From NCBI GenBank assembly GCA_017616895.1, contig JAFZXE010000013.1, forward strand, positions 1-64,000: 64,000 bases of DNA, written 5' to 3'. Source of the DNA: Bacteroidales bacterium. GTDB lineage: Bacteria > Bacteroidota > Bacteroidia > Bacteroidales > P3. A program made the translations under genes and the position numbers. Each line of letters starts with the position of its first letter. Position 1 is the stretch's first letter. The notes below the pieces were generated by a model. That model was not told where the DNA came from and made no database searches. It was given only the letters and a program-made list of their open reading frames with translations. This document shows, piece after piece, positions 15,572-48,536 of the stretch.

Positions 15572-15601
15572 TTGCTACTTTCAAAAAAAGTAGTACTTTT
15601 G
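15572..15601 (+). promoter_or_regulatory. Promoter of the SRP RNA
   Basis: TTG (15572-15574), a 19-bp spacer, then TACTTTTG (15594-15601). This is an exact match to the Bacteroidota primary-sigma pattern, ending a few bases before the RNA. Confidence 0.85.
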
Positions 15602-15603
15602 CA

Positions 15604-15709
15604 ATCGGGTAAGTCTTATACGACCAGCTCCCATTGAATCCCCCAGGGTAGGAATACAGCAAGGGTGTTTGGTTGTAGCGGTGCGATATAATCAGCTTAC
15701 CCTTTTTTT
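15604..15709 (+). ncRNA. ffs: Signal recognition particle RNA (small bacterial type)
   Basis: About 100 nt that closes with GGGTAAG (15607-15613) pairing CTTACCC (15696-15702), followed at once by seven T residues as an intrinsic terminator. The apical part contains CCCCCAGGGTAGGAATACAGCAAGGG with the GGAA-type tetraloop region and the asymmetric AGCA loop that binds Ffh M-domain. This is the conserved SRP domain IV motif. Its own promoter lies just upstream. Boundaries are accurate to a few bases. Confidence 0.88.
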
Positions 15710-38564: not shown

Positions 38565-39143
38565 ATGACAGACACTACCGACACCATAAAGAAACTCCTC
38601 CAGCTCGTCTGCGAGTCGGCGGGCTGCGAAGCCAACACCCCGGGAGATTTCTACACCCTGGCCGGATACATCGAAAAACGCACAGGCGTCCCCATAGGCC
38701 TCACCACCACCAAACGCCTCTGGAACTATGCCGGCCTTTCGTCCAAGCCGCGTATCTCGACCCTCAACCTCCTTGCGCGGGCCCTCGGCTATCGCAATTT
38801 CGAGGATTTTTCAGCCCACCACTCCGACATCACCCCGTCGAGCGACCCCGTTTTAGGACGTGCCATAAAGCAGAGCGACCTCAAGCGCGGCGACCGGCTC
38901 CTTCTGCGCTGGAATCCAGGGCGGGAGCTCATGGTGGAATATCTCGACAACGGCTGTTTCCGTGTGCTCGAGAGCGTCGCCAGCAAGCTGGGCGTCGGCA
39001 CCACCTTCCAGGCCGCCTTCTTCGCGCTGGGCCACCCCGCCATGATTGCCAACGTCATCTACAACGACACCACCTGGACACTCTACGAACTCGGCCAGCA
39101 AGGCGGCATCACATACTTACGCCACATACCCGCCGAACAGTGA
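38565..39143 (+). CDS. Putative regulator divergent from the receptor kinase
   Basis: 192 aa. The N-terminal 80 residues are helical and look like a DNA-binding or docking domain (GDFYTLAGYIEKRTGVPIG, TLNLLARALGYRNFEDFSAH). The LNLLARALGY segment resembles the recognition part of HTH_3-type proteins. The C-terminal half is a small beta-rich domain (SDLKRGDRLLLRWNPGRELM, GCFRVLESVASKLGVG). I do not recognise a named family. The divergent arrangement with the kinase (203 bp between starts) suggests it may be that kinase's partner or regulator. This is inference. Confidence 0.65.
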   Translation: MTDTTDTIKKLLQLVCESAGCEANTPGDFYTLAGYIEKRTGVPIGLTTTKRLWNYAGLSSKPRISTLNLLARALGYRNFEDFSAHHSDITPSSDPVLGRAIKQSDLKRGDRLLLRWNPGRELMVEYLDNGCFRVLESVASKLGVGTTFQAAFFALGHPAMIANVIYNDTTWTLYELGQQGGITYLRHIPAEQ

Positions 39144-39154
39144 TTTCACACCCT

Positions 39155-39344
39155 CTTTTGACAAAATAAAGAGGAATAAACCCTAGTTTTTTGTCAAAAT
39201 CAAGAGGAATAATCCCCACTTTTTTGACAAAATCAAGAGGAATAGCCCCCACTTTTTTCGACAAAATCAAGAGGAATAAGCCTCGCTTTTTTGTCAAAAT
39301 CAAGAGGAATAAGCCACACTTTTTTGTCAAAATCAAGAGGAAAG
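39155..39344. repeat. 33-bp tandem repeat (about 6 units)
   Basis: Six copies of a unit of 33-34 bp with core GTCAAAATCAAGAGGAATAA and a T6 run, in the gap between two convergent genes. Because 33 is a multiple of three, both strands look open in some frames, but no coding signal is seen. Confidence 0.9.
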
Positions 39345-40544
39345 TCAATACATCAGCCCGAAAAGCCACAATGGCAGTTTGTTGCCATAGGGATATTCTA
39401 TGCCGTCACAAGCAAGATAGGCATTCTCTCGGCCCGCAATCTGACTGCCGTCTTTAGAACTGCCCCCTACTTCAAACACCCACTTGCCGTCAACAACGAA
39501 GTCCGCAGATTTGGCATATTCCACACTATGCCGATAGGCTACCTGATTGCAGAAAAAAGACTCTCTGACAGTCCCATCATTGGCCGCAGCGAGATTGAGG
39601 ACATAACACAGATTAGGGTTCTCCATCAGAATCTTGTCGGGTTTCTGCATCCGCTTAACCGACGTGGCATCAGAGTAGAGTAGGCGGATAAGCCGCGCAT
39701 CGTGAAGATATTGCAGATAAGAGGTCAGGCTCACACGACTCAGTTCTAGCATCTTCGACAGCTTGCTGATATCCACAAGCATAGGAACTTCGGTTGCCAG
39801 CACAGCCAAGAGCGCTTTGAGTTTTCGGATATTTCCAACATCAACCCCACGCTGCTGAGGGAGTTCGATTCCTAGAATCATATCCACCACATTCTCGACC
39901 CGAATGGGGTACTGTTTAGGATTTTCCTTGCGAAATGGGTAGTAGCCAGAGCGAAGATATTCACTGAAATGTTCCAACGGACGACATTTGCCGTTCACCT
40001 CCTCACAAATGGCGTCAGCTTGGCATACGATGTCATTCAAGGTGCACTGTGGCAGTTTGATTTTATGATAGAATTCCTGATACTCCCTGAACGACAATCC
40101 CTGCATCTCATAGCACACACACCTTCTCGACAGGTCAGCCTCCGCATTGAGAATCTGCAACAATGAAGATCCTGTGAAAACTATCTTGATTGTGGGATAA
40201 AGGTCATAGATGTTCTTTATATATTGACTCCAATGCGGATACTTGTGCACTTCGTCCAAAAACAGACATTCACCGCCCGACTGATAAAAGGACTGTACGG
40301 TATCCATCAAATCATGCTGTGCAAAATAGGCGCTGTCAAGGTTGATATACAGGGCCTTCTTGGTTGCGGCACCATAGTGCAACTTGATATGCTGGAGTAG
40401 CAGTGTGGTTTTGCCGACGCCTCTGGCTCCGCGAATACCGATAAGGCGGGTGCTCTCCCAGTCAATTTCATACATCAGGGAACGTACAAATGTTGTTGTA
40501 AGATTCTGAATCAATTGACGTTGCAATGCAAAAAATGCTTCCAT
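39345..40544 (-). CDS. DUF4143 AAA-type ATPase
   Basis: 399 aa ATPase of the AAA_14/DUF4143 family. Walker A is GIRGARGVGKTTLLL, Walker B is ECLFLDEVHKY, and sensor IVFTGSS is present. The C-terminal DUF4143 region, a winged-helix and nuclease-like fold, begins around KLKALLAVLATEVPML and ends with FVVDGKWVFEVGGSSKD. The family is common in Bacteroidota accessory DNA; its function is unknown. ATG 40544 is chosen over GTG 40565, which would lie at the putative transcription start. Two perfect palindromes lie just upstream, suggesting regulation. Confidence 0.87.
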   Translation of the reverse strand: MEAFFALQRQLIQNLTTTFVRSLMYEIDWESTRLIGIRGARGVGKTTLLLQHIKLHYGAATKKALYINLDSAYFAQHDLMDTVQSFYQSGGECLFLDEVHKYPHWSQYIKNIYDLYPTIKIVFTGSSLLQILNAEADLSRRCVCYEMQGLSFREYQEFYHKIKLPQCTLNDIVCQADAICEEVNGKCRPLEHFSEYLRSGYYPFRKENPKQYPIRVENVVDMILGIELPQQRGVDVGNIRKLKALLAVLATEVPMLVDISKLSKMLELSRVSLTSYLQYLHDARLIRLLYSDATSVKRMQKPDKILMENPNLCYVLNLAAANDGTVRESFFCNQVAYRHSVEYAKSADFVVDGKWVFEVGGSSKDGSQIAGRENAYLACDGIEYPYGNKLPLWLFGLMY

Positions 40545-40572: not shown

Positions 40573-40579
40573 CATAAAA

Positions 40580-40599
40580 TTGTTTAATACGTTAAACAA
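40580..40599. promoter_or_regulatory. Perfect palindrome, putative operator 1
   Basis: TTGTTTAA-TACG-TTAAACAA: perfect 8-bp arms around 4 bp, placed between the -7 and -35 region of the DUF4143 promoter. Confidence 0.65.
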
Positions 40600-40612
40600 A
40601 GATCACGAAAAT

Positions 40613-40632
40613 TTGTTTAACCCATTAAACAA
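40613..40632. promoter_or_regulatory. Perfect palindrome, putative operator 2
   Basis: TTGTTTAA-CCCA-TTAAACAA: the same arms with a different spacer, 33 bp (three helical turns) from the first site. Confidence 0.65.
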
Positions 40633-40726
40633 TTATCGTCATCCAACGCCTCACTCTCTTAACCTTTTAATCAAACGTGTACGTGGAAAGCCCACCATTC
40701 CGTTCAGACCACTTTTTAACAAATCC

Positions 40727-40834
40727 TCAAAATTATTTATGCCCAAATGTTACATTTCCTCAATATTTCAAACACGTATATATTACAAAATCTCACAATT
40801 TATAATGCCAAATTGTTACATTACCTCATAATTT
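40727..40834. repeat. Imperfect 42-bp direct repeat, 66-bp period
   Basis: Copies at 40727-40768 and 40793-40834 match at 33 of 42 positions. Each contains a GTTACATT core that is part of the near-palindrome AAATGTTACATTT in the first copy. Confidence 0.75.
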
Positions 40835-40963: not shown

Positions 40964-41598
40964 AGACGCAAACCGAGAGAAAAAGGTTTGCCGAAAGAAA
41001 GCGCATTTTCGCCTTATTCCGACCGTGTGAATCTCGACAATTTACACATTATCTGTGATGTTAGGAATAAAGGAGTTACGAGATGCTCCCTTGATTGTAT
41101 ATATACATTCATTGTGGGGCGATTCAAAGTATCTTTATATTCACTTCACAGGGAAGTCGAGACCCTCACACGGGAAGATAGAGACATACTGAATGGCTCC
41201 ACTTTCTTCCGTTGTTGATAGTAAATATAATAGTAAATATAATTGAGTAAAATGCACAACGAACAGTTTGAACAAGTGAAATTGCGAATCCAGCACAACA
41301 AGTTATACACAACATGCAAAAAAACGACATATTTTCACCCATGCGAAAGACTGATTCCCATAGCATTACGAAACGAACCAAAACGGTTTTGGCAGAGACA
41401 GCATTTATTGTGAAATTTGCATGTGAAAAAAATCTTGCGTAGTAATCCAAACAACATTTCTCTTTTCTAATGCTTAATTTCTGATACCTATTGATTATTT
41501 ATGCTATACATAGTTAACGAGTACCCCAAATTTAGCCCAGTTTCGGAATAGCACAAATATAAAATATAGACAGAGCAATATTAATCAATAAAAACAAC

Positions 41599-41630
41599 GG
41601 AGAAAGCCGAAAATCCATAAAAGAGTAGGC
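41599..41630 (+). repeat. Leader repeat, copy A
   Basis: Contains GCCGAAAATCCATAAAAGAG followed by TAGGC, 20 bp before the ATG at 41650. Copies B (42373-42404) and C (44928-44960) precede other genes of the cluster. Confidence 0.85.
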
Positions 41631-41649
41631 GATAATAAAAAATAAAATT

Positions 41650-41892
41650 ATGTCATACAAATTAAAAATCACTGCTGGTCGTAGCGCAGGTGTGGGTTGG
41701 ATGATGAAACCCGATGGTAGTTTTATGAGACAAAACAATGGAATTGAATTGGTTTTTGTTGTTGACTCCCCTTACAAAGACCGTATTTCATCGGATGAAC
41801 TACTGAAACAGACAGGCAACAAATGGAAACCTGGAATAGGGAAACCTGACACCATTATGAATGCCAACGGTTGGAAAGTTGAAGTTATTTAA
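41650..41892 (+). CDS. Small cluster protein 1 (80 aa), unknown
   Basis: 80 aa soluble protein, beta-rich, starting MSYKLKITAGRS, with a Trp/Gly/Pro-rich C-terminus (GNKWKPGIGKPDTI). No family is recognised and no signal peptide is seen. It is preceded by leader repeat A and followed 15 bp later by the GGAGACGTCCT stem-loop. Base composition is AT-richer than the flanking core genes. The size and setting would fit an immunity-type or partner protein, but nothing in the sequence proves it. Confidence 0.65.
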   Translation: MSYKLKITAGRSAGVGWMMKPDGSFMRQNNGIELVFVVDSPYKDRISSDELLKQTGNKWKPGIGKPDTIMNANGWKVEVI

Positions 41893-41906
41893 TCACCCCT
41901 CTTAAT

Positions 41907-41938
41907 AATCAGGGCGGATGGAGACGTCCTCCCTGGTT
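41907..41938 (+). promoter_or_regulatory. Conserved stem-loop, copy 1
   Basis: AATCAGGG pairs with CCCTGGTT around a loop containing TGGAGACGTCCT. It lies between the 80-aa gene and the 133-aa gene, 16 bp before the ATG of the latter. The second copy (42670-42703) keeps the loop but changes stem bases in a compensatory way. Confidence 0.7.
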
Positions 41939-41954
41939 CAAAAATAATCCTTTG

Positions 41955-42356
41955 ATGGAGCAGTGCCGCACAGACAGTATTGAAAACGTCGAGTTGACGA
42001 TTGAGCGCAACTGGAGTCTTGCAGAATTGGAACGTCGTTTTGACGAGACCTTCGAGGCTGAACTTTGGATTTATGGAGTCGCGACAGAAAGGGAGCAACT
42101 CCAATCCCTTGACGGGAACAAACGAATCCGCAATAACCCACGACGCATTGAGGAGCTGGAGGGTGCCGCCAGCAACACACTTATTATTCGCGGTAGCGAT
42201 CAGATAGGAAACATTATTAAGCGTTTGCAGGAGGCCATCGGTTTTGCCGTCCGCATACGCGACCGTCGTTACGGACAGACTCCGCCAGACATACTTCCAC
42301 TTTACGTCGTCCGCGACACCCCACGCCCACGGCACGATATGGAACCTTTAAGCTAA
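41955..42356 (+). CDS. 133-aa protein with two related halves, unknown
   Basis: 133 aa with no signal peptide. The two halves look related: LTIERNWSLAELERRFDETF..AELWIYG and LIIRGSDQIGNIIKRLQEAI.FAVRIRD share a strand-helix-strand plan, which may be a beta-grasp-like fold. No named family is recognised. GC content is higher than in the flanking small genes. ATG 41955 follows the stem-loop. A shrunken second copy is at 42716-42806, which shows that this gene was part of a duplicated unit. Confidence 0.6.
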   Translation: MEQCRTDSIENVELTIERNWSLAELERRFDETFEAELWIYGVATEREQLQSLDGNKRIRNNPRRIEELEGAASNTLIIRGSDQIGNIIKRLQEAIGFAVRIRDRRYGQTPPDILPLYVVRDTPRPRHDMEPLS

Positions 42357-42372
42357 TAAGCTAATAAGCAAT

Positions 42373-42404
42373 GGAGGATGCCGAAAATCCAGAAAAGAGT
42401 AGGC
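42373..42404 (+). repeat. Leader repeat, copy B
   Basis: GGAGGATGCCGAAAATCC followed by AGAAAAGAGTAGGC, 22 bp before the ATG at 42427. Preceded by AT, it forms ATGGAGGATGCC, so a tiny peptide starting MEDAENP could be read from copies B and C. Confidence 0.85.
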
Positions 42405-42426
42405 GTCATCAATAAATCATATTATT

Positions 42427-42654
42427 ATGGCTACATTTGAATTAACCAAAAAAAATGACGTTGGAGGTATTCCAAAAGGATTCAAACTAATTGTAAAATC
42501 CGAGAAAAACTTTGGTTGGCCAGAAAAAGAGGAGTATCTGACATCATTGGAATATCTTCCAAACCTAGGTCAATTAAAGCTTCGTGGCGACTGGAATGCA
42601 TTAACTGGATCTAATTGGAACGGTCATTGGAGCGTAACTAACACAAAACGTTAG
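42427..42654 (+). CDS. Small cluster protein 2 (75 aa), unknown
   Basis: 75 aa, starting MATFELTKKNDVGGIPKGFK, ending in a Trp/Asn-rich stretch (GDWNALTGSNWNGHWSVT). No family is recognised. It occupies the same position in the second duplicated unit as the 80-aa protein in the first (leader repeat before it, GGAGACGTCCT stem-loop after it), yet the sequence is unrelated or only very remotely related. This is the behaviour expected of a variable cassette. Confidence 0.65.
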   Translation: MATFELTKKNDVGGIPKGFKLIVKSEKNFGWPEKEEYLTSLEYLPNLGQLKLRGDWNALTGSNWNGHWSVTNTKR

Positions 42655-42669
42655 AATTAAGATTCAATT

Positions 42670-42703
42670 AATCGGGGGGGGGCTGGAGACGTCCTCCCCG
42701 ATT
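42670..42703 (+). promoter_or_regulatory. Conserved stem-loop, copy 2
   Basis: AATCGGGG pairs with CCCCGATT around a loop with TGGAGACGTCCT. Compared with copy 1 an A-T pair has become G-C and a T-G pair has become T-A, so pairing is kept. Confidence 0.7.
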
Positions 42704-42715
42704 CTAAAAAAACTC

Positions 42716-42806
42716 TGATGGAGCAGCACCGTACAGTCGACATTAACCCCACCACTCTATCATCCGCGATACCCCACGCCCACAGAACGATATGGAACCA
42801 TTAAAG
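42716..42806 (+). pseudogene. Internally deleted copy of the 133-aa gene
   Basis: The first 35 bases resemble the start of the gene at 41955 (TGATGGAGCAGCACCG versus TGATGGAGCAGTGCCG). The last 50 resemble its end (CCGCGATACCCCACGCCCAC versus CCGCGACACCCCACGCCCAC, then GATATGGAACC). About 310 bp from the middle are missing. It cannot encode the full protein. Confidence 0.75.
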
Positions 42807-42821
42807 CAAATAAACACAATT

Positions 42822-44525
42822 ATGGCACACAAAAAACAGGCTACATTTAAAGAGTACACTATTGGTATACGTGAGAATAACAGCATTGAGGTGCTGGTTG
42901 ATGGGAAACCTTACGATGGCGCAGTCAAACCTCTGCTGCGAGACACCATAGCCCCTCAGATTGGACTCTCTTTAGAGGAAAAATGGAATACCCAGATTTT
43001 AGGGAGAAAAATAGTAGACCACATTAATCTCAGCACTACCCCTTCCGAATGCGAAACCATCACTCCAGAACCCCAAGAGGATACCCCATCGGAACCTCAT
43101 AAATATTGGAGAGGATTGTATGGCCTTAAAGACGACAAGGGCAATACAATACTCCGACCGACCTATGAGGAAATGGGTTCATTCTACGACGGATTAGCCT
43201 CTGTCGGGAAAGATGGAAAATTTGGTTACATCGACAAAATGGGGAAAGTCGTCATTGCATTAGAATGGGACTCGGCAGAAAAATTCAGTGAAGGTTTGGC
43301 AGCAGTTAAAAAGGATGGAAAATGGGGTTATATTGACAAGAAAGGAGAGGTTGTTATTCCGTTAGATTATGATTGGGCAGGGGAATTCAGCGAAGGACTT
43401 GCAGCAGTTGAAAAGGACGAGAAGTGTGGCTTCATTGACAAGAAAGGAAAGGTTATTGCTCCGTTTGATTACGACGGGGCAACCATCTTCAGTGAAGGGT
43501 TGGCTGAAGTTGAAAAGGATGGCAAGTGTGGTTTCGTCGACAAAAGCGGGAATTTGGTCATTACTCCTGAATGGAACTGGACAAGGGAATTCTGCGAAGG
43601 ATTTGCGGCAGTTGAAAAGGATGGCAAGTGGGGCTTTATCGACAAAACCGGTAAACTAATTATTCCTCTGAAATGGAATGACGCTAATTACTGCGTCAAT
43701 GGTTTATTTGAAGTAATGAAGGGGAAAAAGTATTGCCTAATAAACAAAAGCAGCAAGATTGTTTTCCAAGGGGGTTACCTGCCATTTCGAGATATCGGCT
43801 ACGGATTTAAAACAGTTGGGTTTGAAAAGGATGGCCTAATTGATAATAACGGAAATATAGTCCTTCCTGAGGAATATGATACAATAAGTGAATTTAAAGA
43901 AGGATTGGCCTATGTCAAGAAAGATGGAAAATGTGGGTTCATTGACAATAACGCAAAGTTAATTATCCCTTTAGAATGGGATAAGGCGCTTGGTTTTTAT
44001 GAAGGTCTTGTCGGGGTAAGTAAAGGAGTAGAGGTTAGTACGGGTTGGGTCCCATACAAACGAGACATGTGGGGATTCATCAACAAAAGTGGCAAAGTAG
44101 TTATTCCATTAGAATGGGATTATGTGGGTAGTTTCTGCGAAGGACTAGCAAAAGTTGCGAAAGACGGAAAGATGGGTTTTGTTGACAAAAATGGCAAGAT
44201 TGTCATTTCTCCTGAATGGTATGATGTTGATGATTTTTGTGATGGTTTTGCATTTTGTGAAAAAAACGGGAAAAAGGGTATCATCAATAGAAGTGGAGAA
44301 ATAGTCATTCCGTTGAATTGGGACAGGGTAAGTTTTTGGGGCAATGAATTGATTGAAGTGGAAGAAAAAAAGAAAGTGGGTCTTCTCAACATGAGCAACG
44401 AGATTGTCCTCCCTGTGGAATATGATAAAATAGCTTCTATCAAGAATGGTCTGGCAGAAGTTACAAAGGATGGTAAAAAGGGATTTATCAACAAGGATGG
44501 TAAATTTGTGGAGCCATTGAAATAA
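42822..44525 (+). CDS. WG-repeat protein with shared N-terminal head
   Basis: 567 aa, cytoplasmic by sequence. Residues 1-72 are a head domain (FKEYTIGIRENNSIEVLVDG, KWNTQILGRKIVDHIN) also present in the nuclease at 44972. Residues 95-567 consist of about 14-16 WG (KWG) repeats of 26-35 residues of the form EGLAAVKKDGKWGYIDKKG then VVIPLDYDWA. WG repeats build beta-propeller or beta-solenoid-like binding surfaces. ATG 42822 is chosen by alignment with the 44972 gene; ATG 42792 falls in the deleted copy. The first 126 bp match the other gene at roughly 93%, then identity drops sharply. Confidence 0.8.
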   Translation: MAHKKQATFKEYTIGIRENNSIEVLVDGKPYDGAVKPLLRDTIAPQIGLSLEEKWNTQILGRKIVDHINLSTTPSECETITPEPQEDTPSEPHKYWRGLYGLKDDKGNTILRPTYEEMGSFYDGLASVGKDGKFGYIDKMGKVVIALEWDSAEKFSEGLAAVKKDGKWGYIDKKGEVVIPLDYDWAGEFSEGLAAVEKDEKCGFIDKKGKVIAPFDYDGATIFSEGLAEVEKDGKCGFVDKSGNLVITPEWNWTREFCEGFAAVEKDGKWGFIDKTGKLIIPLKWNDANYCVNGLFEVMKGKKYCLINKSSKIVFQGGYLPFRDIGYGFKTVGFEKDGLIDNNGNIVLPEEYDTISEFKEGLAYVKKDGKCGFIDNNAKLIIPLEWDKALGFYEGLVGVSKGVEVSTGWVPYKRDMWGFINKSGKVVIPLEWDYVGSFCEGLAKVAKDGKMGFVDKNGKIVISPEWYDVDDFCDGFAFCEKNGKKGIINRSGEIVIPLNWDRVSFWGNELIEVEEKKKVGLLNMSNEIVLPVEYDKIASIKNGLAEVTKDGKKGFINKDGKFVEPLK

Positions 44526-44552
44526 CATAACAAGAGAAACAACTAAAAGCCA

Positions 44553-44909
44553 ATGAATAAGACAAAACTTATTAAAGCTATTGAAGACTACCGTAAAGGT
44601 AAAGGGAGTGGAAAAACCAGAAAAACGGTAGAAGAATACTTCATTAAACTTGCCGACCAACATGATGGGAATTGGGAAGTGCCTGATGGTATGCCTTGTA
44701 AAAGTTATTTACCTTGGTTTGGAGAAACTCATGCTGACCATTGGGTAGACGAAGGAACTCCTTTATCTATCATTCATCTTGGGGAGAGTGCGCTTATTGA
44801 GATTGACGGATGGTCAACAGCTATTGACGAACTTGACGACGAGGTTGAAATGCCTGCCCTCATTAGTATTCTTGAGGCTTTGATAAGGCTTTATAACATC
44901 GAGTTTTAA
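44553..44909 (+). CDS. Small cluster protein 3 (118 aa), unknown
   Basis: 118 aa acidic protein: a basic N-terminal helix (MNKTKLIKAIEDYRKGKGSG) followed by an acidic, Trp-containing middle (PWFGETHADHWVDEGTPLS) and a helical end (VEMPALISILEALIRLYNIE). No family is recognised. It lies between the WG-repeat gene (27 bp after it) and leader repeat C (18 bp before it). An immunity or accessory role is possible by position only. Confidence 0.65.
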   Translation: MNKTKLIKAIEDYRKGKGSGKTRKTVEEYFIKLADQHDGNWEVPDGMPCKSYLPWFGETHADHWVDEGTPLSIIHLGESALIEIDGWSTAIDELDDEVEMPALISILEALIRLYNIEF

Positions 44910-44927
44910 GACGAATAAGGAAATAAT

Positions 44928-44960
44928 GGAGGATGCCGAAAATCCATAAAAAGAGTAGGC
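44928..44960 (+). repeat. Leader repeat, copy C
   Basis: GGAGGATGCCGAAAATCC followed by ATAAAAAGAGTAGGC, 11 bp before the ATG at 44972. Nearly identical to copies A and B. Confidence 0.85.
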
Positions 44961-44971
44961 ATTATAATATT

Positions 44972-46600
44972 ATGGCATACAAAAAACAGGCTACATTTAA
45001 AGAGTACACTATCGGTGTACGCGAGAACAACAGTATTGAGGTGCTGGTTAATGGGAAACCTTACGATGGCGCAGTCAAACATCTGCTGCAAGATATTGCA
45101 CAAAATGTAGGTTTCTCCGTCGAAAAGAAATGGAACACCCAAGACCTGGGAAGAAAACTGGTGGATATTATTAACAACAAGGAAACAAAAATAGGAAAAC
45201 CAACCTCGAATATAACCAATAAAGAGAAAACTCCTGCCATCCTGATTAATATCATGTACTCTGGCAGCTATCTGAAAGAAAATCTTGGACACGAAGTAAT
45301 CAATCTTATTGCGACTGACAATGACGAACATTACATTTATGTTAACCCTATTGGCAAAATAGGAAAAGATGCAATAAAAAAGTATAACATCGAATACATT
45401 CTTCTCGGCCAACTAACAAATGCAAAAACAGTTAAGGTTATTGCAAAAGCCACAGGTCTTAAGATGCTAGAGAGCACGAAAGAAGCATTAACTGGCGAAG
45501 GACATAATGCAAATGAAGGAAAAATCCTCCAAATAATATATGATCGACACAAAAAAGAATTAAAATTAAAAGATGTAAAGTATGGAGGGAAAAAATTAGA
45601 GGACATTTTTCCTGATGAAAGACAATTGCTTGCGACATTTAAAGCAGACAAGGTTGTTATGGCAAAAAAGGAAACTTATATTTATGCATATGATTATAAG
45701 GAAGACGAAGAAAACAAACTCCCCGAGTCTTATCACGATAGGGAAAAGTCTTTTGAATTTGCCAAACAAAAACCATATATGTATTTTCCAAAAACAAACA
45801 AAAAAGGAGGTGAATTACCAGATTACGAAAAGTTATTGTATATCATTGAACATACAGAATGGGAAGAAAATAGTGTTGAAGAATACAACCCCGATAAGGT
45901 TATTCCAACCTCAATGCTTGAGATAATGGGTAAGGAATTTAGCGAACTGTCATATTCAAACATGATTCACTACTTTCTTGCAAACTACACCAAGCTACAA
46001 GGGCCATTTATTGAATTTTTAACAATAACAAAAAAGAACCCCTCAATTCCACCGACTAGCAGTTTCGAAATCTACCGAGAGTACCACCCAGAATCGAATA
46101 ATAAATCACAGGATGGATTTGAAAATGAATCGGATAATAAAAAAAGTTCGTCACCTATTGATTTGTTAATTAAATATGGTGAGAACAGAATTATCATCGA
46201 AAACAAGATAAAAGCAGAAATTGGTGCCCTAAAAACAGATGGCGAAGGAAATCAGTTGACAAGGTATGTCGAGGAGCTGAAAAAATACGAAAATGTCGAT
46301 GAAGAAAAAATCCATTGTTTCATTCTAACACCTAAATACCATAAGATTGACATCGAACAGCTGTCCGAACAAATGGAAGGAGCCAATAAGAAATTGTTAA
46401 AGAAATACAAATCAATAACATACGAAGACCTCCATAATTTCTTTGAAAAAAATAAAAGATTTATTTCTACCGACCGCTATTTGGAAGAATTCTTAAGTGC
46501 CCTTAAACTTCATGCGAGTGATACAGACGATTATAACTATCGCATAATGATGCGTCGACTGGGGAAGAGGATAAAAGACATTGATGAACTCAAAAAATAA
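44972..46600 (+). CDS. PD-(D/E)XK nuclease with shared N-terminal head
   Basis: 542 aa. The head (about 1-70) is the same as in the WG-repeat protein (FKEYTIGVRENNSIEVLVNG, WNTQDLGRKLVDIINN). A middle domain (about 88-330) includes ILINIMYSGSYLKENLGHEV and VNPIGKIGKDAIKKYNIEYI and matches nothing I can name. The C-terminal part is a PDDEXK_4-like nuclease: PIDLLIKYG (Asp near 397) and IIIENKIKAE (E-x-K near 410), followed by QLTRYVEEL. It could be a sensor-nuclease effector. The next gene, 6 bp on, is another nuclease. The gene is strongly AT-rich. Confidence 0.78.
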   Translation: MAYKKQATFKEYTIGVRENNSIEVLVNGKPYDGAVKHLLQDIAQNVGFSVEKKWNTQDLGRKLVDIINNKETKIGKPTSNITNKEKTPAILINIMYSGSYLKENLGHEVINLIATDNDEHYIYVNPIGKIGKDAIKKYNIEYILLGQLTNAKTVKVIAKATGLKMLESTKEALTGEGHNANEGKILQIIYDRHKKELKLKDVKYGGKKLEDIFPDERQLLATFKADKVVMAKKETYIYAYDYKEDEENKLPESYHDREKSFEFAKQKPYMYFPKTNKKGGELPDYEKLLYIIEHTEWEENSVEEYNPDKVIPTSMLEIMGKEFSELSYSNMIHYFLANYTKLQGPFIEFLTITKKNPSIPPTSSFEIYREYHPESNNKSQDGFENESDNKKSSSPIDLLIKYGENRIIIENKIKAEIGALKTDGEGNQLTRYVEELKKYENVDEEKIHCFILTPKYHKIDIEQLSEQMEGANKKLLKKYKSITYEDLHNFFEKNKRFISTDRYLEEFLSALKLHASDTDDYNYRIMMRRLGKRIKDIDELKK

Positions 46601-46606
46601 GAGAAC

Positions 46607-48145
46607 ATGGCTAATGTAAACCTTTCCAAATCCCGCTATACGGCCTATTGTCAATGTCCGAAGAACCTTTGGCTCGGGGTTTACCATCCTGAAGTAATAG
46701 ACAATGATCCCGCCACATTGGCACGTTTCGAGAAAGGTTCCGAGGTGGGTGAACTCGCCAAGCGTCTATTCCCAAGCACCATCGATGTGACTACACATAA
46801 TGGCGAAGCCCTCGACCTCAAGGCCATGATTGAAAAAACACAGCAGTGCATAGCCAACGGTACCGAGGTGATTGCAGAAGCAGCCTTCTCCTACGAAGGG
46901 TGCTATTGTGCAGTCGATTTGCTGCGCCACGAGGGTGACGGATGGACCATCTATGAGGTGAAAAGCACCTCCAACAAGGAGGAAGGCGGCAAACTGAAGA
47001 AATTCGACAAGTACCTGCCAGACATCGCCTACCAGACTTGGGTACTGCGCCAATGCGGCATCAAAGTGACGGGCATCAACCTTGTATGCCTCAACCGCGA
47101 CTATGTTAGGCATGGAGAGCTCAACCCACAGCAATTGTTTGCCATCATCGACATGCGGGAAGCTGTAGAAGATGAACTAGCCAAAGTTCCAATGCAGGTG
47201 CCTGAAGCATTGAAAGTGCTGAAACAGGAGGCTGAACCCAACATCGACCTGTCGGAAAACTGCGAGAAACCTTACCATTGCGCTTTCTGGAACTATTGTA
47301 CGCGCCATCTGCCCGAAGATTCCGTCTTTAAGGTATATGGCTCTTCAACCGGAAAAGGTGATGCAACTTTCCATATCGACAAGAAACTTGAACACTACCG
47401 TGCAGGAAGGGTGTCGTATGAGCAGTTGGTCGATCAGCCGTTGGGTATCATTCAACGAATGCAGGTGAAACGACAGACACACATCGACCGCGACGGCATA
47501 CGCAGATTTCTCGACAGGCTCACCTATCCGCTTTACTTCCTTGACTTTGAGACCATGCAAGACGTCATCCCGCAATATGACGGCACACGACCCAGCATGC
47601 AGATTACGTTCCAGTATTCGTTGCACGTTGTTGACTCTCCCGACAGCATCTGCAAGAAACATGGTTACGGCTATCTAGCCCCCAGCGATGGAAGCGACCC
47701 GCGACGCAAACTGGCTGAAGACCTCTGCCGGCATATACCAATGGGTGTCTGCACTTTGGCCTATAATATGAGTTTCGAAAAAGGCCGTATTTCGGAGTTG
47801 GCACAAGTCTATCCCGACCTTCACGACCACTTGATGGACATACACAGCCACATCATCGACTTAATCGAACCCTTTCGAGCTGGATATTACTACTTGCCAG
47901 ACATGAATGGGTCGTTCAGTATCAAGAGCGTACTGCCTGCGTTATTCCCTGGCGACCCAGACCTTGACTACCACAACCTCGAAGGGGATGTCCATAATGG
48001 AACCGAGGCGATGACAATATTCCCGAAAATCAAGGATATGCCGCCCTCGGAAGCAGCCGAAGCCCGCAAGTCACTGCTCCAATACTGCAACCTAGACACA
48101 TGGGCGATGGTTAAAGTGTGGGAGAAACTGATGAATTGTAAATAA
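46607..48145 (+). CDS. DUF2779 protein: Cas4-like nuclease plus DEDD exonuclease
   Basis: 512 aa. The N-terminal half resembles Cas4/RecB nucleases: SKSRYTAYCQCPKNLWLG with C15/C17, VDLLRHEG and YEVKSTSN (D...E-x-K), and a Cys cluster CEKPYHCAFWNYC (about 222-234) that together can hold a 4Fe-4S cluster. The C-terminal DUF2779 domain has DnaQ/DEDD features: YFLDFETMQD, LAYNMSFEKGRI, DLIEPF and QYCNLDTWAM. DUF2779 genes are often found as accessory genes. Here the gene follows the head-nuclease by 6 bp, which suggests one operon. GC content returns toward the core level. Confidence 0.85.
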   Translation: MANVNLSKSRYTAYCQCPKNLWLGVYHPEVIDNDPATLARFEKGSEVGELAKRLFPSTIDVTTHNGEALDLKAMIEKTQQCIANGTEVIAEAAFSYEGCYCAVDLLRHEGDGWTIYEVKSTSNKEEGGKLKKFDKYLPDIAYQTWVLRQCGIKVTGINLVCLNRDYVRHGELNPQQLFAIIDMREAVEDELAKVPMQVPEALKVLKQEAEPNIDLSENCEKPYHCAFWNYCTRHLPEDSVFKVYGSSTGKGDATFHIDKKLEHYRAGRVSYEQLVDQPLGIIQRMQVKRQTHIDRDGIRRFLDRLTYPLYFLDFETMQDVIPQYDGTRPSMQITFQYSLHVVDSPDSICKKHGYGYLAPSDGSDPRRKLAEDLCRHIPMGVCTLAYNMSFEKGRISELAQVYPDLHDHLMDIHSHIIDLIEPFRAGYYYLPDMNGSFSIKSVLPALFPGDPDLDYHNLEGDVHNGTEAMTIFPKIKDMPPSEAAEARKSLLQYCNLDTWAMVKVWEKLMNCK

Positions 48146-48239: not shown

Positions 48240-48536
48240 ATGGCAATATTCCTTTGGCTTTTCCAGTTTATCAGCCCTATCGCTATTTTGTTAGGGTTAT
48301 TGTATTTGTGTAGCGGCCCTTCAACTATGGCATTGATTGTAGGTGCGCTTAGTGCCGTCCTCGGCCTTGTGGTAGGCATAGTCGGTTGGGCGGATACAGT
48401 GCCTCCCCGCTGGTTTTGGATCAAAAGCCGTGTGGATTTAGCGGGAAGCCGCTTCCTGACCGCCATCGGCTACGCCATACAGTTCTTCTTCCTGGCACTC
48501 GCCATATTCGGCTTGGTGGAATATTTCAACCAATAG
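48240..48536 (+). CDS. Small hypothetical membrane protein
   Basis: 98 aa with three hydrophobic segments (about 3-25, 29-50 and 73-95) and a short loop with TVPPRWFWIKSRVDLAGSR between the second and third. No family is recognised. It stands alone between the DUF2779 gene and the acyltransferase, followed by a terminator. Confidence 0.6.
   Translation: MAIFLWLFQFISPIAILLGLLYLCSGPSTMALIVGALSAVLGLVVGIVGWADTVPPRWFWIKSRVDLAGSRFLTAIGYAIQFFFLALAIFGLVEYFNQ

What the first reader, a model, noticed from the sequence alone, without database searches (positions are those of the whole stretch)
41599..46600. Constant/variable cassette-like locus with reused DNA modules
Within 5 kb the same DNA pieces recur around different genes. 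There are three copies of a 32-bp leader repeat, two copies of a stem-loop, one intact and one deleted copy of a 133-aa gene, and a 5' gene segment of about 126 bp shared by two otherwise different genes. Three small genes (80, 75 and 118 aa) have no recognisable family. Reused constant DNA around variable genes is how polymorphic toxin/immunity or cassette systems grow. The role (defence, competition or sensing) is inference, but the modular reuse is directly visible. It is the strongest candidate here for an undescribed system.
Basis: partly seen in the sequence, partly recalled or inferred. Interest (0 to 1): 0.8.

Follow-up and report, generated by a model that had tools for sequence, protein, structure and literature searches.

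The report
Shuffling Bacteroidales adaptor-nuclease gene cluster
This stretch belongs to a gene cluster, widespread in gut Bacteroidales, in which a small shared protein domain is attached to nucleases and sensor-like repeat proteins, and in which whole genes appear to come and go at copies of one short RNA-coding repeat.

Summary
The modules are real. The 32-bp "leader" is a known RNA, DUF805b (Rfam RF02914), three copies above the curated cut-off; pair counts support an H-type pseudoknot, usually about 22 nt before a start codon. The shared 5' gene segment encodes a ~68-aa domain ("head") without a significant family match. It occurs in 79 kept loci, nearly all Bacteroidales, alone, doubled, or fused to PDDEXK_4 nuclease, WG repeats, BspA-type leucine-rich repeats, OmpA proteins, KAP NTPase and a second new domain ("tail"). 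The 133-aa gene is a divergent tail relative. Neighbours (kinase, TerB, ion channel, pyroglutamyl peptidase) come in changing order. Leader-plus-gene units behave as cassettes: a 524-bp unit in L124 is absent from L168 and L169 with the joint inside the leader, and leader-to-stop blocks recur within and between genomes. So the cassette reading is supported; toxin/immunity is not. Most likely role: head-mediated coupling of sensors to a nuclease effector, in defence or stress.

The parts
41597..41631 (+). leader 1: DUF805b RNA (RF02914), 18 nt before the 80-aa gene
   Evidence: cmscan 47.8 bits, cut-off 35.6
41650..41892 (+). 80-aa variable gene; weak similarity to another DUF805b-led 72-aa gene (L022)
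   Evidence: ORF; no family; similarity to the L022 gene p about 0.001 by shuffling
41907..41938 (+). stem-loop 1: about 13 bp with GAGA loop, 15 nt after the 80-aa stop codon
   Evidence: model R1 46.3 bits, a training sequence; compensatory pairs
41955..42356 (+). 133-aa gene, divergent 'tail'-domain protein
   Evidence: tail profile 15.2 bits; best of the shuffled versions 8.6; BLASTP E 2e-6 to the tail gene of L104
42371..42405 (+). leader 2: DUF805b RNA, 21 nt before the 75-aa gene
   Evidence: 48.0 bits
42427..42654 (+). 75-aa variable gene; homologue in L101, also DUF805b-led and beside a head gene
   Evidence: phmmer E 2.6e-33; leader and gene in L101
42670..42703 (+). stem-loop 2, 16 nt after the 75-aa stop codon
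   Evidence: model R1 43.1 bits, a training sequence
42706..42804 (+). deleted copy of the 133-aa gene (both ends kept, middle lost)
   Evidence: alignment of the two units; repeats D10, D14, D16
42822..44525 (+). head domain + 12 WG repeats (567 aa; start chosen by head homology, an in-frame ATG lies at 42792)
   Evidence: PF14903 E 4.8e-123; head profile
44553..44909 (+). 118-aa gene, no significant family
44926..44961 (+). leader 3: DUF805b RNA, 10 nt before the head-nuclease gene (closer than usual)
   Evidence: 51.1 bits
44972..46600 (+). head domain + PDDEXK_4 nuclease (542 aa); D397, E410, K412 motif kept
   Evidence: PF14281 E 1.1e-10; motif; partial PADLOC PDC-S26 match E 2.3e-8
46607..48145 (+). 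DUF2779 protein with a weak Cas4-like region; in L115 a homologue follows PDDEXK_4 with one small gene between
   Evidence: PF11074 E 4.5e-42; L074 and L115 homologues
48240..48536 (+). 98-aa gene of the family I call tm101, present in 13 of 79 head loci
   Evidence: 84% identical to the L073/L093 gene
36608..38362 (-). Ser/Thr kinase + BspA-type LRR; my kinase family is in 23 of 79 head loci
   Evidence: PF00069 E 1.1e-34, PF13306 E 1.8e-37; BLAST hits in 27 loci of the head set, some perhaps through the LRR
38565..39143 (+). 192-aa gene of the reg193 family (26 of 79 head loci)
   Evidence: no Pfam family
39345..40544 (-). AAA_14 ATPase; related genes in 13 of 79 head loci
   Evidence: PF13173 E 1.8e-29; L100 homologue 47%

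Best explanation
The locus (about 36.6-48.5 kb, wider than the finding) belongs to an apparently undescribed, rearranging Bacteroidales gene cluster built on a ~68-aa adaptor-like domain (head) and a ~100-aa partner domain (tail). In this genome one head carries a WG repeat protein and the other a PD-(D/E)XK nuclease with its motif kept. Most likely the head brings sensor-type proteins (WG, LRR, OmpA) together with effector nucleases, much as effector-associated domains are thought to do in other conflict systems, so that a signal such as infection or envelope damage unleashes the nuclease. Several members are expressed behind DUF805b pseudoknot leaders, usually about 22 nt before the start codon, which probably act on translation initiation. 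Leader-plus-gene units are gained, lost and duplicated by recombination between leader copies, which explains the constant leader with variable gene. Shown here by sequence: domain, architectures, co-occurrence, pseudoknot pairing, leader-bounded units. Inferred: head-head contact, nuclease activity and its activation, the trigger, translational control.
For: Head in 97 confirmed stretches, 79 loci kept. Of 106 head ORFs (duplicate locus L067 left out) 27 are free-standing single heads, 38 free-standing double heads and 41 carry 40 or more further residues; by my profiles these include OmpA type 6, tail 9, PDDEXK_4 4, KAP 2 clear (L099, L122), c304 2, nuc224 1, and by Pfam LRR_5 and WG repeats. 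Neighbours among 79 loci: tail 60, OmpA type 58, ion channel 42, coiled coil 42, nuc224 37, TerB 32, kinase 23, nearly all on the head's strand; median gap 34 nt among the 156 neighbours closer than 250 nt. 47 of 79 loci hold nuc224 or PDDEXK_4. Pseudoknot: four P1 pairs stand in 65-81 of 83 sequences and the outer P2 pair in 80 of 83 with 5 pair types, each above all 2000 shuffles; 81 of 90 measurable sites have the ATG 15-30 nt away. Cassettes: 524-bp unit present/absent with the joint in the leader, L169 flanks 96% and 99% identical; leader-gene blocks 96.6% and 97.6% identical that start 2-9 nt before the leader and end 7 nt after the stop; 20 of 111 homologous blocks start at a leader in both loci, 0.49 expected from position. 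Defence hints: PDC-S26 partial match of the window nuclease, PDC-S29 (E 2.2e-71, L074) and PDC-S20 (5.7e-32, L067) in related loci.
Against: Co-resident heads are not generally more alike than heads elsewhere (nearest in the same locus for 3 of 129; median percentile 0.44 of 57), unlike described effector-associated domains; the window pair is an exception. 32 of 79 loci show no nuc224 or PDDEXK_4; truncation contributes, but 18 of 50 loci over 14 kb also lack one. nuc224 has no Pfam match. Kinase matches in PADLOC are to kinase domains in general, and head-WG, head-LRR and nuc224 have none. Block edges at leaders are not independent events, and conserved gene units alone would give edges near genes; only the L124/L169/L168 joint and the near-identical duplicated units escape that doubt. 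Only 11 of 115 tail genes and 23 sites in 16 of 79 head loci have a leader, and in the unbiased set the leader mostly precedes unrelated genes. Leader 3 of the window lies only 10 nt before its gene.
Confidence: 0.5

Rival explanations
1. A physiological envelope or stress signalling cluster with no conflict role: kinase, OmpA-type membrane proteins, ion channel, TerB and peptidase form a membrane-linked complex and the head is its scaffold; nucleases serve repair or turnover.
For: Frequent OmpA type (58), ion channel (42), pyroglutamyl peptidase (22) among 79 loci, none a classical effector; the leader is a general one.
Against: Reshuffled order and patchy presence (7 of 393 order genomes with a 4-row profile; 3 of 61 relatives), nuclease fusions, and a site that carries a quite different large gene in one close relative are unusual for housekeeping.
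Confidence: 0.3
2. Polymorphic toxin/immunity cassettes: head is a constant trafficking part, the variable ends are toxins and the small genes immunity proteins.
For: Constant N-terminal part with variable ends in the window; small unknown genes beside them.
Against: Head is also C-terminal, doubled and free-standing; partners include WG, LRR, OmpA and KAP; no significant secretion-linked family in the window proteins.
Confidence: 0.06
3. No system: a region of ordinary duplications and decaying paralogues that happens to hold a general regulatory leader.
For: One 133-aa copy is deleted; the leader occurs before many unrelated genes; 80-aa and 118-aa genes have no relatives among the loci held.
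Against: The same families recur together on one strand in scores of named genomes; the 75-aa gene with leader and head neighbour recurs in L101.
Confidence: 0.07
4. Leader sites are targets of a dedicated recombinase, integron-like, rather than passive homology.
For: Leader-bounded blocks and the in-leader joint. Two genes upstream of the head-WG gene in L146 read like serine recombinases by eye (not searched).
Against: No integrase among the 11 window genes of the locus that were scanned; the L124/L169 joint lies in sequence identical in both leaders, which plain homologous recombination explains.
Confidence: 0.05

Closest known systems
DUF805b RNA (Rfam RF02914, clan CL00115)
   Same: All three leaders exceed the curated score; P1 hairpin as in the Rfam model
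   Different: The Rfam structure line shown has only P1; I add pair counts for P2 (pseudoknot), a preferred distance to start codons, the link to the head/tail cluster and the role as recombination joint. The original description (recalled, Weinberg and colleagues 2017; not read) may already draw the pseudoknot.
Effector-associated domains (EADs) of ternary conflict systems (PMC7159879, section 30 read and other passages seen; PMC8195603, passages seen)
   Same: Small domain without a known enzymatic family, terminal, several copies per locus, fused to effector and signalling parts, partly in adjacent genes
   Different: No MoxR-vWA, VMAP, iSTAND or GAP1 core in the proteins scanned; co-resident copies are not closest relatives except in the window and one gene of L112; no significant Pfam match
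PADLOC candidates PDC-S26, PDC-S29, PDC-S20
   Same: Window nuclease matches PDC-S26 partly; related loci carry EcsC-TerB (PDC-S29) and KAP (PDC-S20) proteins
   Different: These are candidate labels; no PADLOC model matched the WG protein, and the nuclease match covers only the nuclease domain
Integron gene cassettes
   Same: Constant element bounding exchangeable genes
   Different: The constant element is a 5' regulatory RNA, and no integrase was identified among the scanned window genes

Membership tests
DUF805b RNA (RF02914) | score above gathering cut-off | tested here: met
   51.1, 48.0, 47.8 bits against 35.6
DUF805b RNA (RF02914) | P1 stem and position before a coding gene | tested here: met
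   P1 supported over 83 sequences; leader 1 has one mismatched Rfam pair; 10-21 nt before an ATG in the window
Effector-associated domain | small domain without enzymatic features | tested here: met
   about 68 aa; no significant match in Pfam, NCBIfam, PHROGs or PDB sequences (best E 0.081)
Effector-associated domain | terminal copies fused to effector and signalling domains, further copies nearby | tested here: met
Effector-associated domain | copies in adjacent genes closest to each other | tested here: not met
   3 of 129 (two of them the window pair); median percentile 0.44; confounded by close orthologues and by the two halves of double heads
Effector-associated domain | one copy fused to a core MoxR-vWA/VMAP/iSTAND/GAP1 component | tested here: not met
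   none above cut-off among 58 proteins scanned with Pfam; a sub-threshold TCAD9 match of the window kinase (E 0.019) is the nearest; not every locus protein was scanned
Effector-associated domain | homotypic binding | not testable with these tools
   structure prediction switched off
Polymorphic toxin system | secretion or trafficking part on the toxin | tested here: inconclusive
   no significant family in the window proteins; signal peptides were not scanned
Polymorphic toxin system | cognate immunity gene | not testable with these tools
   small neighbours have no family
Integron cassette array | integrase gene | tested here: not met
   none among 11 scanned window genes; whole genome not searched
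Integron cassette array | attC site | not tested
   no attC model was run
PADLOC PDC-S26 | full-length model match | tested here: not met
   window residues 346-506 match model 72-198 of 413, E 2.3e-8

The most novel reading that the evidence does not exclude
A gene-cassette system in which a 35-nt pseudoknot RNA is both the expression leader and the recombination boundary: genes are plugged in behind DUF805b leaders of a Bacteroidales immune or stress island, and a new adaptor domain family (head) links whichever sensors and nucleases are plugged in.
Probability: 0.3. Interest if true: 0.85.

Novelty: new variant of a known kind. Interest (0 to 1): 0.65.

Why it matters
It gives a widespread but unexplained Bacteroidales RNA a definite anatomy (a pseudoknot at a preferred distance from start codons) and a gene cluster in which it recurs, and it names two protein domains, absent from the family libraries searched here, with a readable fusion grammar. 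If the head does couple sensors to nucleases, gut Bacteroidales have an adaptor-based response island that these libraries do not show. The leader-bounded units make the question of how such islands swap genes directly testable by strain comparison.

Tried and rejected
Head in viral contigs, plasmids and phages: no match, so no sign of carriage there. Whole-locus DNA in plasmids gave one WG-repeat hit, phages none. 133-aa gene by single-sequence search of 61 relatives: own genome only, and direct BLASTP to the L050 gene found nothing; the relation shows with the tail profile and by BLASTP to L104, and against all 30,919 ORFs held its profile E is only 0.053. Hairpin pattern search: 15 of 61 genomes matched; by folding I kept G000, G022, G023 and G030 with the full AATCnGG/CCnGATT stem; a match in G018 folds about as stably but lacks those end pairs and was left out, the others looked like chance. 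Two weak hairpin matches in L135 (E 0.11) were also left aside. Hairpin as a strand-specific RNA: doubtful, 3 of 7 copies in the head set have the opposite loop orientation, and stable hairpins are general behind tail genes (mean -12.0 against -6.1 kcal/mol for shuffled, 115 genes), so it may be a 3'-end or terminator-like element. A fifth P1 pair is not supported (27 of 83 paired, shuffled mean 26.7). Head and solved structures: best E 0.081, not significant. 80-aa and 75-aa as one family: rejected. Paper searches (listings only) showed no description of this cluster, and none that holds the word DUF805b; the library lacks most subscription papers, so this is no proof of absence from print. 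One search was a script that failed on a file name; one search replaced it, and its rows for minus-strand loci were not turned, so I use from it only the window rows and took the others anew.
Full report
Observation. In order on the + strand: leader, 80-aa gene, stem-loop, 133-aa gene, leader, 75-aa gene, stem-loop, deleted 133-aa copy, head-WG gene, 118-aa gene, leader, head-PDDEXK_4 gene, then DUF2779 and a 98-aa gene. Between the two tandem units the leader and stem-loop are alike while the enclosed gene is not. The shared head DNA starts at the ATG and ends after about 120 nt.

The leader is known. It is DUF805b RNA, RF02914. It was found in 48 of 61 genomes (own genome and 60 relatives), 111 matches at E up to 0.001. 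From the loci fetched for these matches (not all were fetched) I recovered 67 sites by pattern and read the next gene: mostly unrelated genes, often small lipoprotein-like, porin-like or peptide genes by eye; apart from the window one (L217) belonged to a head-locus family. Over 92 sites (relatives plus head loci) the median distance from the 3' end of P2 to the ATG is 22 nt, and 81 of 90 measurable sites lie at 15-30 nt; leader 3 of the window, at 10-11 nt, does not. Over 83 distinct sequences four P1 pairs stand in 65, 81, 77 and 81, and the outer P2 pair in 80, with G-C 68, U-A 6, G-U 3, A-U 2 and C-G 1, each above all 2000 shuffles; slid P2 controls give 6-13. The inner two P2 pairs were nearly fixed by my search pattern and say nothing. 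This supports an H-type pseudoknot. A role in translation initiation is inference from the spacing.

The head domain. Residues 1-69 of the 44972 protein matched in 3 of 61 genomes and a four-row profile in 7 of 393 genomes of the order. Reading those loci revealed a common neighbourhood. An 11-row profile scanned over named genomes gave 97 confirmed stretches, 79 loci kept, mostly Bacteroidales MAGs, many from rumen and gut, with Porphyromonas uenonis, Capnocytophaga gingivalis and two MAGs labelled Moraxella. With the window, L067 and L074 added there are 109 head ORFs; L067 is part of L124, so 106 without it, in 78 of the 79 loci and the window and L074.

Architectures and neighbours. Of the 106, 27 are free-standing single heads, 38 free-standing double heads and 41 have 40 or more further residues. 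By profile these carry OmpA type 6, tail 9, PDDEXK_4 4 (L124, L131, L165, window), KAP 2 clear (L099, L122), c304 2 and nuc224 1 (L162); by Pfam LRR_5 (L107, L116, L123, L136, L168) and WG (window, L143; L146 by similarity). In L124 (L067) the head is at the C-terminus of the nuclease protein, in the window at the N-terminus. Gene calls for neighbours were simple (longest ORFs; this step keeps a head gene in 72 of 79 loci). Family presence among 79 loci: tail 60, OmpA type 58, coiled coil 42, ion channel 42, nuc224 37, TerB 32, basic 86-aa 31, reg193 26, kinase 23, pyroglutamyl peptidase 22, AAA_14 13, KAP 11, PDDEXK_4 10; apart from reg193 (7 of 28 genes) and a minority of AAA_14 and a few other genes they lie on the head's strand.

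The window as a member. Besides the two head genes the window has genes of the kinase (with LRR), reg193, AAA_14 and 98-aa families of these loci, DUF2779 next to PDDEXK_4, as in L115 with one small gene between, and the 133-aa gene, which scores 15.2 bits with the tail profile; of 5000 shuffled versions none of the 2905 reported exceeds 8.6. The 75-aa gene has a homologue in L101 behind a DUF805b leader beside a head gene. The 80- and 118-aa genes have none among the loci held.

The stem-loop. A model from five copies (two of the window, G022, G023, G030) finds it in the 79 head loci at seven places in six loci: L093 (the G022 training copy), L094, L099, L110, L116 and L164 twice, each 14-17 nt behind the stop codon of a tail-type gene, about 7 of 115 tail genes. 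In G023 it also follows a tail-like end (L084, read by eye). Three of the seven have the opposite loop orientation. In the window it follows the 80- and 75-aa genes instead. With these search settings no tail gene of the relatives had both this leader and this stem-loop, so the full leader-gene-hairpin frame is seen in the window alone.

Cassettes. 23 leaders lie in 16 of 79 head loci, 1.08 Mb, about 21 per Mb, against about 0.65 per Mb in the 61 genomes (111 matches in roughly 170 Mb, my sum of the rounded sizes; methods differ, the pattern being the stricter). 11 of 115 tail genes have one. L100 holds two units 96.6% identical over 378 bp, from 8-9 nt before the leader to 7 nt after the stop; L096 and L100 share one at 97.6% over 369 bp. 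Of 111 blocks (80% or more identical, 150 bp or more) between leader-bearing loci 20 begin at a leader in both, 0.49 expected from position alone; several of the 20 reflect the same few leaders, and conserved genes alone would place edges near genes. The clearest case is L124 against L169 and L168: L169 flanks 96% and 99% identical, L168 about 87-89%, a leader plus 128-aa gene present only in L124, and the joint inside sequence common to both leaders. Plain recombination between direct repeats suffices.

Site variability. Of 37 genomes searched only G014 has a close orthologue of the right flank (74% identical; the next gene 95%). Upstream of it lies a 2879-aa gene instead of this cluster; its start resembles SpvB/RHS proteins, a recalled resemblance not tested. 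One comparison does not establish a hotspot.

Function. The nuclease keeps D397, E410 and K412 and the kinase its HxD and DFG motifs (motif meaning recalled). 47 of 79 loci have nuc224 or PDDEXK_4, 32 of the 50 over 14 kb. nuc224 has conserved D and ELKY residues (36 sequences) compatible with the same fold but no Pfam match, so calling it a nuclease is inference. PADLOC matches are partial or generic for the window proteins. The best-supported reading is adaptor-mediated coupling of sensors and nuclease in defence or stress; a purely physiological envelope role is the main rival. Against a strict EAD reading, co-resident heads are rarely each other's closest relatives (3 of 129).

Literature. 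EAD features were taken from PMC7159879 (section 30 read, other passages seen) and PMC8195603 (passages seen). Searches for DUF805b, DUF805, PDC labels, family combinations, WG repeat and Pfam accessions listed no account of this cluster. The original DUF805b paper was not read and is recalled only.

Noticed in passing
window 39123-39375: About six tandem 33-bp units (TTTTGACAAAATCAAGAGGAATAA type) between the reg193 gene and the AAA_14 gene.
   Followed up: no
window 40578-40634 and 40719-40834: A 23-nt inverted repeat (91% complementary, 11 nt between arms) and three diverged repeats spaced 33 nt upstream of the locus.
   Followed up: no
L242 112-8751 (G014): A 2879-aa gene at the site equivalent to this locus in a same-genus relative, resembling SpvB/RHS-type proteins by eye.
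   Followed up: no
L190, L205, L206, L220, L229: DUF805b-led 49-60-aa peptides sharing an EYxxPxVExxxARVERGF/KGY-like start; look like precursor peptides.
   Followed up: no
L009, L026, L030, L033, L046, L047, L174, L185, L191: A recurring family of DUF805b-led small lipoprotein-like genes with a CxC motif.
   Followed up: no
L182: DUF805b-led 140-aa protein made of short repeats (KVYKGDSTSYSNQ type); another short-repeat protein lies at 73744-74157 of the window's contig, L075.
   Followed up: no
L161 and L167: Double-head genes with OmpA-type neighbours in MAGs labelled Moraxella: transfer or misbinned contigs.
   Followed up: no
L146 3131-5392 and L143 189-473: Genes that read like serine and tyrosine recombinases by eye, upstream of the head-WG genes of two Alistipes MAGs; these loci may be mobile.
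   Followed up: no
window 15600-15706: Bacteroidales small SRP RNA (RF04183), 115.7 bits.
   Followed up: no
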